From Halobacillus ihumii (GTDB lineage Bacteria; Bacillota; Bacilli; Bacillales; Halobacillaceae), in assembly GCF_902726645.1 (NCBI RefSeq), contig NZ_CACVAO010000001.1:3146764-3210763 (forward strand): DNA of 64,000 nt. Reading direction: 5' to 3'. The position numbers and the translations under genes were made by a program. Positions 37,277 to 40,161 of the stretch are shown piece by piece. Numbering within the stretch: position 1 is the stretch's first letter; the number at the start of each line of letters is the position of its first letter. Under the pieces are notes generated by a model. It ran no database searches and had not been told where the DNA came from. It saw only the letters and a program-made list of their open reading frames with translations.

Positions 37277-37834
37277 ATGGCCCAAAAAACTGCTTTACTC
37301 ATTATCGATATGATTAATAAAATGGATTTTGACGGCGGCGAGGCTCTGCTGGAAAATACGAAATCCATAATGGACAACTTAAATCGTTTAAAAAAAGAGG
37401 TCAAGCAACGAGGCATTCCTGTAATCTATGTAAATGATAATTTTGGGCTATGGCAAGATAATAAGACCGACCTTATTGAGGAATGCAGAAAGGGAATCGG
37501 CCGTCCTATCATTAACGGAATTCTCCCGGAAGATGATGACTATTTTATTATTAAACCTAAACACTCCGGTTTTTACGGGACCCAATTGAATATTTTGTTG
37601 GGGCAGCTGGGCATTTCCAACTTGATCTTAACCGGGGTCGCAGGGGATATTTGTGTTTTATTTACAGCCAATGACGCTTATATGCGTGAATTTAACTTAT
37701 GGGTTCCACGAGATGGAATAGCCTCAGAGAAAGAAGAAGATAACGAAAATGCGATTAAAATTATCGAAAGGTCACTGTTTGCGCATACAGCCAAAATCTC
37801 TAAAACCGATATTGATAAGGTTTTTGATTATTGA
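37277..37834 (+). CDS. Isochorismatase-family cysteine hydrolase
   Basis: 185-residue alpha/beta hydrolase of the isochorismatase/nicotinamidase superfamily. The triad candidates are Asp in LLIIDMINKMDF, Lys in IIKPKHSGFYG and Cys in GVAGDICVLFTANDAY. The metal-binding DxH of true nicotinamidases is not evident (DNFGLW in that place), so amidase substrate is uncertain. Coupling to nadE hints at a pyridine-nucleotide role. The stop codon overlaps the -35 of the next promoter. Confidence 0.8.
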   Translation: MAQKTALLIIDMINKMDFDGGEALLENTKSIMDNLNRLKKEVKQRGIPVIYVNDNFGLWQDNKTDLIEECRKGIGRPIINGILPEDDDYFIIKPKHSGFYGTQLNILLGQLGISNLILTGVAGDICVLFTANDAYMREFNLWVPRDGIASEKEEDNENAIKIIERSLFAHTAKISKTDIDKVFDY

Positions 37835-37859
37835 CATTTCTGAGGGAACTGTATATTCT
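37831..37859 (+). promoter_or_regulatory. SigA promoter of the mutS2-like leader
   Basis: TTGACA, 17-base spacer, TATTCT. Transcription would begin near 37866, leaving a leader of about 370 bases before the MutS2-like start codon. Confidence 0.7.
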
Positions 37860-37918
37860 AAAGGTAGAGAACGGTATGTTCTGCCATTTAATTCCATTCT
37901 TTAAAGGAGAATGTTTGT

Positions 37919-37939
37919 ATGAGTGTTGTTCTTAACTAA
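37919..37939 (+). CDS. Six-codon upstream ORF (MSVVLN) in the mutS2-like leader
   Basis: ATG-AGT-GTT-GTT-CTT-AAC-TAA with a strong AAAGGAGA site (37903-37910) at ideal eight-base spacing. Its last codons can pair with 38025-38037 (13 pairs, including a perfect TCTTAACTA/TAGTTAAGA). This is the layout of leader peptides that sense ribosome stalling by antibiotics; function here is inferred. Confidence 0.55.
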   Translation: MSVVLN

Positions 37940-38099
37940 ATCCGTTAATTGGATACTGTTCTGAAATTTTGAGAAAGACATGCAATATGCAGGTCATATT
38001 TGTGTTTTCTAAATTTTTCAGAAATAGTTAAGAGCGAGCATTCTCATAGCAGAAGCATCTGATATACAAGCTATGGCTTACTTAGTCATAGCTTTTTTT
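37926..38099 (+). promoter_or_regulatory. First attenuator: structured leader with terminator 1
   Basis: An outer helix joins the uORF to 38025-38037 and encloses a nested stem with the GACATGC / GCAGGTC tip at 37979-37997. Terminator 1 is AAGCTATG (38068-38075) with CATAGCTT (38087-38094) and seven T. CATAGC at 38045-38050 can instead pair with GCTATG (38070-38075), forming an antiterminator. Confidence 0.6.
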
Positions 38100-38130
38100 A
38101 TATCACTTAAATGGCGGAGCACCAAAAAGG

Positions 38131-38208
38131 CGCAGCAATGTGTCTTTAGGTTCTCCATAAATAACCATTTCAGCTGCGATGAGCCTTTGAGCTTATGGCG
38201 GCTTTTTT
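38131..38208 (+). promoter_or_regulatory. Second attenuator: antiterminator and terminator 2
   Basis: Terminator 2 pairs 38172-38184 with 38191-38203 (one mismatch) and ends in six T, 27 bases before the MutS2-like start codon. CGCAGC at 38131-38136 complements GCTGCG at 38173-38178, so an alternative antiterminating fold exists. A three-codon ORF (ATG-TGT-CTT-TAG, 38138) starts right beside this arm behind AAAAAGG. Confidence 0.55.
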
Positions 38209-38235
38209 ATGGTTGAAAATAGGAGGTAATCAAAG

Positions 38236-40161
38236 TTGAACAAGGTAACCTTTCAAACGTTAGAATTTCATGAGATTTTATTGGAAGTGAGCGGCTACGC
38301 ATTAACCGATAAAGGAAAAGAAACGATCTTAGCATGCAAACCATCAAACGATAAACGGTTGATTACTCATTGGCATCAGGAAGTTGATGAAGCAAAAGCG
38401 ATCCTCTCGAGCTCCGGTAATGTGCCTATTCATACCTTGAATGATGTCACTCAAATGCTGGAACAAGCCAAAAAAGGCATGTTAATTCGGGCTGATCAAT
38501 TTTCCCGGCTGGCTTCATTTCTAGATCATTGCACAAAATTAAAACGGTTCATGAAAGGGAAAGAAATCATGGCTCCGACGATTAGTCTGTATGCGTGGTC
38601 AATTGCGGATTTAACTATACTGGAAGAAGAATTACATCGGGTCATCCGGCATGGTCAAGTGGACGACTACGCCTCTAAAGCCTTAGCGAAAATCCGCAAA
38701 AAAATAGCATCTAAAAGCATGAAGATTAAAGAGAAAATCGATCACATGACAAAGTCTGCTAAGTTTAAACCATATATGCAGGATAAACTCGTGGTCGAAA
38801 AGAATGGGAGATATACTCTTCCAATTAAGAAAGAAAATCGAAATAAAGTAAAGGGATCCATTGTGGATCAGTCTTCTTCAGGAGCTACTTTATTTATTGA
38901 GCCCGAGGAGGTGACAGTTCATCAAGAAGAGTTGCATATTCTTAAAATTAGTGAGGAGCAAGAGGTGGAGCAAATCCTCTACACGCTGACGAACACGGTT
39001 ACATCCTACGAACAAGAGTTGTCTATTGCCATGGAAACGATGCATAAGTATGATGTTATTTTTGCAAAAGCGAAGTACAGTCAGCACATCAATGGAAAGT
39101 CAGTAACTATAAATGAGGAGGACATCATCAACTTACAAGAAGCCAGACATCCGCTGCTTAGGGAACAAGCTGTGCCTTTGACGATTACGATGGACTCGGA
39201 TGATCGAAGTTTAGTAATTACAGGACCGAATACAGGTGGGAAAACGGTTACTCTTAAGACAGTTGGACTTCTGGTAATAATGGCGCAAGCAGGTATTCAT
39301 ATACCAGCGTCAAAAGGAAGTACGCTGCCTCTATACCAACACGTGCTTGTTGATATCGGGGACGGACAAAATATTAAGGAAAATCTAAGCACGTTCAGTT
39401 CAAGACTAGTGAACATCATTGAAGTGATGAGGCAAGCCAACGAGTACAGTCTTGTGCTGCTTGATGAATTAGGTTCTGGAACGGATCCGGGAGAGGGAAT
39501 GGGTCTAGCTACAGCTATTTTAGATCAATTAGCTGATAAAGGGGCCAGAATATTAGCTACTACCCATTATAGTGAGATGAAGGATTATGCAGAAGGGAAA
39601 CAAGGATTTATCAATGCTGCCATGGAGTTTGATGTTGACACACTGCAGCCAACGTATAAACTTATCCTGGGTGCAACAGGGAAAAGTCAGGCATTTGATA
39701 TCGCCTTAAAGCTTGGTTTACACCCGAAGATTCTTGAAAAAGCTTACGCGATTACGTATAAACAGGAAAAAACTTTTCATGTCGATGATACATGTTTAAG
39801 GAAGCTTGATTATAGCCAACAAGTTGCCGTTAACCGTTACGGAAAGGTGTCTCGATCGAAAGGGAAGGTTGATCATACATCAGCCGAATTCCAGATGGGA
39901 GACAATGTTACCATTCAAGCAACAGGGGAGACGGCTATTGTCTATAAAGGGCCAGACCAACGGGGGAATTATATTGTGCAAATTAAAGGAGAAAAGCAGA
40001 CCATTAATCATAAGCGGTTAAAGCTTCATATCCCAGCAAAAGAACTTTATCCTGAAGACTACGACTTTGATATTATTTTCAAATCAAAAGAGTACCGTAA
40101 AATCAAACATCAAATGGGGAAGAAGCATGTGGAAGGGCAGTATCTTGAGGAGGAAGAATAA
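38236..40161 (+). CDS. MutS2-like ATPase lacking the Smr nuclease domain
   Basis: 641-residue MutS-family ATPase. It has the MutS2-type core and clamp region (residues 1-320), Walker A GPNTGGKT at 330-337, the stretch ENLSTFSSRL, Walker B VLLDELGSGTDPGEG and the His switch ATTHYSEMK. After about 510 the long coiled region of MutS2 is missing; a KOW-like segment follows (GDNVTIQATGETAIVYKG), and the Smr domain is absent. Canonical MutS2 (about 780 aa) splits collided ribosomes or limits recombination. Start TTG 38236 with TAGGAGG ahead. The attenuator leader suggests induction by translation inhibition. Confidence 0.82.
   Translation: MNKVTFQTLEFHEILLEVSGYALTDKGKETILACKPSNDKRLITHWHQEVDEAKAILSSSGNVPIHTLNDVTQMLEQAKKGMLIRADQFSRLASFLDHCTKLKRFMKGKEIMAPTISLYAWSIADLTILEEELHRVIRHGQVDDYASKALAKIRKKIASKSMKIKEKIDHMTKSAKFKPYMQDKLVVEKNGRYTLPIKKENRNKVKGSIVDQSSSGATLFIEPEEVTVHQEELHILKISEEQEVEQILYTLTNTVTSYEQELSIAMETMHKYDVIFAKAKYSQHINGKSVTINEEDIINLQEARHPLLREQAVPLTITMDSDDRSLVITGPNTGGKTVTLKTVGLLVIMAQAGIHIPASKGSTLPLYQHVLVDIGDGQNIKENLSTFSSRLVNIIEVMRQANEYSLVLLDELGSGTDPGEGMGLATAILDQLADKGARILATTHYSEMKDYAEGKQGFINAAMEFDVDTLQPTYKLILGATGKSQAFDIALKLGLHPKILEKAYAITYKQEKTFHVDDTCLRKLDYSQQVAVNRYGKVSRSKGKVDHTSAEFQMGDNVTIQATGETAIVYKGPDQRGNYIVQIKGEKQTINHKRLKLHIPAKELYPEDYDFDIIFKSKEYRKIKHQMGKKHVEGQYLEEEE

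What the first reader, a model, noticed from the sequence alone, without database searches (positions are those of the whole stretch)
37831..38235. Tandem attenuator leader with a six-codon uORF upstream of an Smr-less MutS2 gene
Seen directly: a SigA promoter, an MSVVLN mini-ORF with an optimal ribosome site, a long-range helix between the end of that ORF and 38025-38037, two intrinsic terminators (38068-38094 and 38172-38203), and for each terminator an upstream segment (CATAGC 38045, CGCAGC 38131) exactly complementary to its left arm. A three-codon ORF sits beside the second antiterminator arm. This is how antibiotic-resistance leaders (erm, vmlR and ABC-F genes) sense stalled ribosomes. 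Inference: the downstream MutS2-like ATPase is induced when translation is inhibited and may be a ribosome-rescue or resistance factor; I know of no described system of this kind for an Smr-less MutS2.
Basis: partly seen in the sequence, partly recalled or inferred. Interest (0 to 1): 0.88.

Follow-up and report, generated by a model that had tools for sequence, protein, structure and literature searches.

The report
Conserved ribosome-stall leader controlling MutS2 paralogue
Upstream of a shortened relative of the ribosome-rescue protein MutS2 lies a tiny conserved gene ending in Val-Leu-Asn-stop, inside an RNA switch that probably turns the rescue gene on when ribosomes stall there; the same switch also precedes a polyamine-synthase-like gene in related bacteria.

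Summary
The leader is real and widely conserved. In 144 of 147 upstream regions of MutS2-like genes from the window's order, a uORF of 6, 7 or 9 codons with a ribosome site ends in [V/I]-L-[N/D]-stop; the other three hold a displaced or altered copy. The uORF end (GTTCTTAAC) pairs with GTTAAGAAC 67-116 nt downstream, 9 of 9 pairs in 136 of 144. Between lie a covarying stem and a hairpin with a NusG-type pause motif; terminators follow in 143 of 144 (shuffles 33). Blocking the uORF end in fold models favours antitermination. The same leader precedes 13 of 17 BpsA-like (branched-polyamine-synthase-like) genes; two more follow leader-mutS2-like in an operon. Most likely this is a ribosome-mediated transcription attenuator of the vmlR/msrD/hflXr type that induces a ribosome-splitting paralogue under translation stress. 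Signal, stall and induction are untested. The second antiterminator arm and three-codon ORF are not conserved. New variant of a known kind, with an apparently unrecognised regulon.

The parts
37831..37859 (+). SigA-type promoter TTGACA-17-TATTCT; -35 overlaps the end of the upstream isochorismatase-family gene
   Evidence: >=10/12 promoter in 119 of 144 leaders vs 5.3% of shuffles
37903..37909 (+). Shine-Dalgarno AAAGGAG of the uORF
37919..37939 (+). uORF MSVVLN-stop (leader peptide); relatives have MSVxVLN*, MLGVVLN*, MEKVVLN* and others
37928..37936 (+). P1 5' arm GTTCTTAAC (codons Val-Leu-Asn)
37940..37955 (+). P2 small hairpin (ATCCGTTAATTGGAT)
37959..38023 (+). P3 long hairpin; its base stem covaries across the family
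37996..38005 (+). U-rich pause-like motif ATATTTGTGT after the apical hairpin (TTATTT in most relatives; imperfect here)
   Evidence: TTNTTT in 116 of 144 leaders; the window is one of the 28 without it
38027..38035 (+). P1 3' arm GTTAAGAGC (anti-antiterminator)
38030..38050 (+). Antiterminator 5' strand AAGAGC...CATAGC; overlaps the P1 3' arm, pairs with 38070-38083
38068..38094 (+). Intrinsic terminator 1
38172..38203 (+). Intrinsic terminator 2
38221..38226 (+). Shine-Dalgarno AGGAGG of the mutS2-like gene
38236..40161 (+). Smr-less MutS2-like ATPase, 641 aa, TTG start
39901..40032 (+). C-terminal KOW-like beta barrel (residues 556-599)

Best explanation
This is a ribosome-mediated transcription attenuator. 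Shown by sequence comparison: promoter, translated-looking uORF ending Val-Leu-Asn-stop, P1 helix between the uORF end and a downstream arm, P2/P3 with a pause-type hairpin, first antiterminator, terminators, then the gene. Inferred: RNA polymerase pauses after P3 while a ribosome translates the uORF. If termination is normal the ribosome leaves, P1 forms, the arm 38027-38035 is occupied, and RNA polymerase stops at terminators 1 and 2. If the ribosome stalls at the last codons or at the stop codon (drug in the tunnel or peptidyl-transferase centre, or failing peptide release), it covers 37928-37936, P1 cannot form, and the freed arm together with CATAGC pairs with the left arm of terminator 1, so transcription reads through. 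How terminator 2 is passed is not resolved. The product, a MutS2 paralogue with the ATPase core and a KOW-like barrel but no Smr domain, then probably binds and splits stalled or collided ribosomes, as was proposed for HflXr in Listeria. The BpsA-like enzyme under the same leader would be a second effector of the same response.
For: uORF in 144 of 147 regions, lengths 7 (127), 9 (14) or 6 (3) codons. Val at codon -5 in 112 of 144 with all four Val codons used (53/29/20/10), so selection acts on the amino acid there. P1 9/9 in 136 and 8/9 in 8 of 144; P1 is kept through change in L096 (AAC to AAT with GTT to ATT) and, read by eye, in L187 and L189. P3 base cognate duplex -13.4 against -6.8 kcal/mol non-cognate, n=87; all 87 elements fold with z below -2. 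TTNTTT in 116 of 144 against 39.6 expected, and in 26 of 31 further leaders, most from the class-level search, against 10.1. Terminators in 143 of 144, shuffles 33. Blocking the uORF raises sequestration of terminator 1's left arm: 40 up by more than 0.1 and 4 down, of 115; window 0.49 to 0.68; a block of equal length in P3 changes nothing. Leader and mutS2-like gene co-occur: 101 of 104 genomes with the exact pattern are among the 130 (of 397) with a mutS2-like match, and two more have a frameshifted one. Foldseek's top hits of the model are MutS2 structures, among them the disome-bound B. subtilis protein 7qv3.
Against: No experiment. P1 is almost invariant, so its own covariation is thin (1 of 8 pairs with a two-sided change, in one of 87 sequences). 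When the uORF ribosome-site region was included, the fold model gave the opposite sign for the window (0.32 to 0.09) although the family trend held (67 up, 6 down of 115). Most leaders change little (71 of 115 within 0.1). The antiterminator for terminator 2 is not conserved. The window's pause motif is imperfect, and 28 of 144 leaders lack TTNTTT. The P3 signal is weaker in the further set (-9.2 against -7.6, n=31). Relatedness was only partly removed from the counts. Two of 17 BpsA-like genes have no such leader in the stretch seen.
Confidence: 0.75

Rival explanations
1. The uORF senses polyamine state or general peptide-release capacity rather than antibiotics: a ribosome terminates slowly at Asn-stop when polyamines (or release factor 1) are short or in excess, and the leader adjusts a polyamine-type enzyme and a rescue ATPase.
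For: Same leader on BpsA-like genes and in an operon with them; stop codon UAA 143, UAG 1, UGA 0 of 144 although UGA was allowed in the search; nascent-peptide or uORF control of polyamine genes is listed elsewhere (search listing and abstract starts only).
Against: The BpsA-like subfamily scores only 140-155 bits on BpsA_C over about 190 of 243 positions, and the higher-scoring BpsA group (10 loci seen) has no such leader; its product is unknown. In the order-level sample the leader was found before mutS2-like genes, with one decayed bpsA-like and one GNAT exception.
Confidence: 0.15
2. Classical amino-acid attenuation: shortage of Leu- or Asn-tRNA stalls the ribosome at CUU or AAC.
For: Leu 144 of 144 and Asn 143 of 144 at fixed positions.
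Against: Only one codon of each is fixed, no run of control codons; the genes are not amino-acid or tRNA-synthetase genes; codon -5 prefers Val or other small residues, pointing to nascent-peptide effects.
Confidence: 0.05
3. The conserved RNA is a protein- or ligand-binding switch and the uORF is incidental; the near-invariant GTTCTTAACTAA/GTTAAGAAC is a recognition site.
For: Both arms are nearly invariant at nucleotide level, more than pairing alone needs.
Against: A start codon, SD and frame are kept in 144 of 147 while the 5' part of the uORF varies; synonymous use at codon -5.
Confidence: 0.04

Closest known systems
hflXr/rli80 attenuator of Listeria monocytogenes (PMC6310831, passages)
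   Same: A second copy of a ribosome-splitting factor behind a leader with small ORF, anti-antiterminator, antiterminator and terminator
   Different: 14-aa ORF with RLR motif and HflX-type protein; here 6-9 aa ending VLN-stop and a MutS2-type ATPase; induction shown there, not here
vmlR leader of Bacillus subtilis (PMC9226507, passages)
   Same: uORF inside the anti-antiterminator stem, pause hairpin with UUAUUU (TTNTTT), then terminator
   Different: uORF is Met-Ile-Asn with arrest at initiation; controls an ABC-F gene; one terminator plus an SD-sequestering hairpin
msrDL leader (PMC10314930, passages)
   Same: Very short hydrophobic peptide (MYLIFM-UAA); erythromycin blocks its termination and relieves an intrinsic terminator
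   Different: Different peptide, gene and genus; arrest and drug known there
tlrB (yxjB) leader of B. subtilis (PMC6851288, passages)
   Same: Short leader peptide plus NusG-dependent pause between peptide and gene
   Different: Arrest at RYR during elongation; rRNA methylase
uORFC-6-1 motif before hflX in Bacillales (PMC8632094, passages)
   Same: Computed uORF/RNA motif upstream of a ribosome-rescue gene in the same order
   Different: RLR motif, other gene; the word mutS does not occur in that paper's main text
MutS2 of B. subtilis (PMC10897456, passages; PDB 7qv3)
   Same: ATPase core 39% identical over 522 alignment columns; KOW-like barrel
   Different: No Smr domain and a shorter stretch between core and barrel; regulated by this leader, whereas the two full-length mutS2 genes and one B. 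subtilis copy looked at have no such motif upstream

Membership tests
Ribosome-mediated transcription attenuator of the antibiotic-leader kind | Short uORF with ribosome site ahead of the gene, conserved C-terminal residues | tested here: met
   144 of 147 regions
Ribosome-mediated transcription attenuator of the antibiotic-leader kind | Anti-antiterminator involving the uORF, conserved or covarying | tested here: met
   P1 9/9 in 136 of 144; P3 covariation
Ribosome-mediated transcription attenuator of the antibiotic-leader kind | Antiterminator exclusive with both P1 and the terminator | tested here: inconclusive
   Terminator 1: 81 of 113 with >=6 bp and model shift; terminator 2 arm at chance; window sign depends on set-up
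Ribosome-mediated transcription attenuator of the antibiotic-leader kind | Intrinsic terminator between uORF and gene | tested here: met
   143 of 144, shuffles 33 of 144
Ribosome-mediated transcription attenuator of the antibiotic-leader kind | Ribosome stalls on the uORF and induces the gene on a specific signal | not testable with these tools
   needs toeprinting and reporter assays
MutS2 | MutS2-type core and ABC ATPase with intact Walker motifs | tested here: met
   TIGR01069 600 bits, cut-off 400; GPNTGGKTV and the DELGSGTDP region kept in 38 aligned relatives
MutS2 | C-terminal Smr domain | tested here: not met
   no Smr match in Pfam; model ends after the barrel and short helices
MutS2 | KOW domain | tested here: inconclusive
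   five-strand barrel 557-599; weak alignment to MutS2 residues 631-689
BpsA (genes sharing the leader) | BpsA_C domain over cut-off | tested here: met
   PF01861 E 1.3e-41; PDB relatives 2qm3 and 5xnc; product not tested, domain coverage partial
Amino-acid attenuator | Run of control codons for the amino acid made by the operon | tested here: not met
   one fixed Leu and one fixed Asn codon; genes unrelated

The most novel reading that the evidence does not exclude
The VLN-stop leader marks an unrecognised translation-stress regulon of Bacilli: a seven-residue termination-arrest peptide that senses blocked peptide release and switches on an inducible ribosome splitter (Smr-less MutS2) and a partner enzyme of the BpsA fold that protects the ribosome by a polyamine or by modifying RNA, together a new kind of ribosome-protection module, also found on a plasmid.
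Probability: 0.45. Interest if true: 0.88.

Novelty: new variant of a known kind. Interest (0 to 1): 0.82.

Why it matters
It would give the short MutS2 paralogues, matched in 130 of 397 sampled genomes of the order, a defined trigger and role, make MutS2-type ribosome splitting an inducible defence as HflXr did for HflX, add a very short conserved arrest-peptide candidate, and tie a polyamine-synthase-like enzyme to ribosome rescue. Each link can be tested with a leader reporter and toeprinting.

Tried and rejected
Rfam search of the window and of the leader: nothing. Viral contigs: no exact match to the leader pattern. The idea that the leader in G050 controls a two-component/ABC-transporter operon was dropped: between leader and operon lie what I read by eye as remains of a bpsA-like gene (compare). 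Reverse-strand 'uORFs' (MISVVLN and the like) were set aside because the inverted repeat P1 makes the pattern match both strands; rows whose peptide began MIS were left out. RNAalifold on a MAFFT alignment recovers P1 only, because P3 varies in length; the cognate/non-cognate test replaced it. Of 90 less redundant leaders, 87 went into; L019, L100 and L139 were dropped as unusually spaced. Covariation of the window arm GAGC with the apex of terminator 2 was considered and dropped: L010 breaks it. High-scoring BpsA genes as regulon members rejected: 0 of 10 loci, two of them shortened by contig ends. Searches for print: no paper in the held library has both MutS2 and uORF; the listed results held no mutS2 leader, but several of those lists were capped. 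Subscription papers and preprints are not held. Two truncated mutS2-like matches (G031, G347) were not fetched for the 147 regions.

Full report
WHERE. The window is from a Halobacillus-like genome: the closest held locus is H. hunanensis, 94% identical in the MutS2-like protein; its own genome is not held. The gene 38236-40161 encodes 641 aa. It matches NCBIfam mutS2 (600 bits, cut-off 400) only up to residue 514, and in Pfam only MutS_V. The best 120 of 8000 relatives are mostly about 640 aa long; names among them include Halobacillus, Pontibacillus, Thalassobacillus, Evansella, Cytobacillus and Shouchella. All 44 genomes of the nearest family match the query at E 1e-100 or better, and a full-length MutS2 of about 780 aa at about 40% identity is present beside the short one where both were listed, so the short gene is a paralogue.

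THE PROTEIN. Walker A GPNTGGKTV and the DELGSGTDP region are kept across 38 aligned proteins. The AlphaFold2 model (mean pLDDT 84.4) has the MutS2 core and, after a poorly predicted linker, a five-strand barrel at 557-599. Foldseek ranks a MutS2 model (9a5o) and the B. subtilis MutS2-disome complex 7qv3 first and second (7qv3: TM 0.72/0.77). The barrel aligns weakly to the KOW position of full-length MutS2. In B. subtilis the KOW and SMR domains recruit MutS2 to collided ribosomes and the ATPase splits them (PMC10897456, passages). A protein with core and KOW but no Smr could therefore still reach and split ribosomes; this is inference.

THE LEADER IN THE WINDOW. Promoter, SD, uORF MSVVLN*, P1, P2, P3, two terminators and the gene's own SD were all found at the stated coordinates. 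The fold is far below shuffles (z -8.75).

COMPARISON. I collected 147 upstream regions including the window. A strict search found the uORF in 144. The three misses are explained: L013 has the leader farther upstream behind an insertion (L188); L064 has a variant ending VFN with P1 kept by a wobble pair (L189); L141 has, read by eye, a diverged uORF with P1 changed on both strands (L187). Peptide lengths are 7 (127), 9 (14) or 6 (3) codons. Counting back from the stop: Asn 143 and Asp 1; Leu 144; Val 136 and Ile 8; then Val 112 of 144 with all four codons in use. The last 12 nucleotides are almost invariant, so pairing and peptide are probably both constrained there; only codon -5 gives clean evidence for the peptide.

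RNA STRUCTURE. P1 pairs 9/9 in 136 and 8/9 in 8 of 144, against 2.3% for 9/9 in mononucleotide shuffles. On 87 of 90 less redundant leaders, P3 base stems pair better with their own partner than with others' (-13.4 against -6.8 kcal/mol; fewer than five foreign partners as good for 63 of 87, more than ten for 10 of 87), and all 87 fold with z below -2. TTNTTT, the NusG pause motif (PMC9226507, passages), lies between uORF and arm in 116 of 144, expected 39.6; the window has only an imperfect copy. A terminator finder gives at least one in 143 of 144 (two or more in 108) against 33 of 144 dinucleotide shuffles.

SWITCH MODEL. With the transcript cut in the loop of terminator 1, blocking the uORF end as a stalled ribosome would raises the share of terminator 1's left arm held by upstream sequence from 0.57 to 0.68 (40 up, 4 down of the 115 leaders whose first terminator lies near), and for the last terminator from 0.48 to 0.57 (49 up, 5 down of the 108 with two or more); for terminator 1 a block of the same length inside P3 changes nothing. 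In the window the induced structure pairs AAG-AGC...CATAGC with GCTATGGCT..CTT, i.e. the P1 3' arm is part of the antiterminator. A first version that included the uORF ribosome site gave the family trend (67 up, 6 down of 115) but the opposite sign for the window. The terminator-1 complement exceeds shuffles; the terminator-2 arm does not.

SPECIFICITY AND REGULON. The exact leader pattern occurs in 104 of 397 genomes of the order, and the reversed control pattern in none. 101 of these are among the 130 with a mutS2-like match; the other three are two genomes with frameshifted mutS2-like genes and one with bpsA-like remains. One genome (G216) has a second copy before a GNAT acetyltransferase. 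At class level 51 of 398 genomes match, control none. Not every class-level place was fetched; in the places looked at, the leader precedes a mutS2-like gene or a gene of the BpsA_C kind, and several genomes have both (for example G573, G567, G653, G779). A rough motif rule put all 45 distinct leaders of one set into these two families (28 and 17; this set was partly chosen through bpsA-like genes). Of 17 BpsA-like genes found by domain search in 299 genomes, 13 have the leader directly upstream; two (G445, G660) follow mutS2-like in an operon behind the leader; two have none in the stretch seen. Ten higher-scoring BpsA loci have none. Proteins like the BpsA-like one are named in Brevibacillus, Paenibacillus and Aneurinibacillus. 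The mutS2-like gene with this leader also occurs on records filed as plasmids of Cytobacillus spongiae (690 kb), Paenibacillus sp. IHB B 3084 (pHD01, 115 kb) and P. cellulosilyticus (2.7 Mb), all typed non-mobilizable; only pHD01 is of ordinary plasmid size. Two full-length mutS2 genes examined, and a B. subtilis copy, have no such motif upstream.

READING. The parts match the vmlR scheme (uORF in the anti-antiterminator, pause hairpin with UUAUUU, terminator), the very short UAA-terminated arrest peptide of msrD and the logic of hflXr, a second ribosome-splitting factor under an attenuator. I therefore hold that this is a ribosome-stall attenuator inducing a MutS2-type ribosome splitter. Shown: conservation, pairing, covariation, terminators, shared leader. 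Inferred: stalling, its signal, read-through, and the work of both proteins. The near-invariance of VLN-stop across two gene families suggests arrest at the end of the peptide, perhaps at termination, but nothing here shows it.

PRINT. No paper of the held open library contains both MutS2 and uORF. In the listed results of six other searches that named MutS2 I saw no description of this leader; several lists were capped. Subscription papers and preprints are not covered.

Noticed in passing
L183:7145-7948 (G216): A second VLN-stop leader (TTG start, LKVVVLN*) about 6 kb from the mutS2-like copy stands before a GNAT acetyltransferase of unknown substrate.
   Followed up: partly
window 38172-38203 and the last terminators of the other leaders: The last terminator often has an apex GAAC..GTTC (30 of 108) or GAGC..GCTT/GCTC (21 of 108), echoing the P1 3' arm; reason unknown.
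   Followed up: partly
L222, L230, L231: A small ORF (112-138 aa, membrane-protein-like) follows the bpsA-like gene in several genomes; recalled as DoxX-like, not tested.
   Followed up: no
L184, L185: Two genomes carry the leader before a frameshifted mutS2-like gene (pseudogene or sequencing error).
   Followed up: no
L188 (G020): A stretch inserted between leader and mutS2-like gene separates them by about 1 kb.
   Followed up: partly
   Followed up: no
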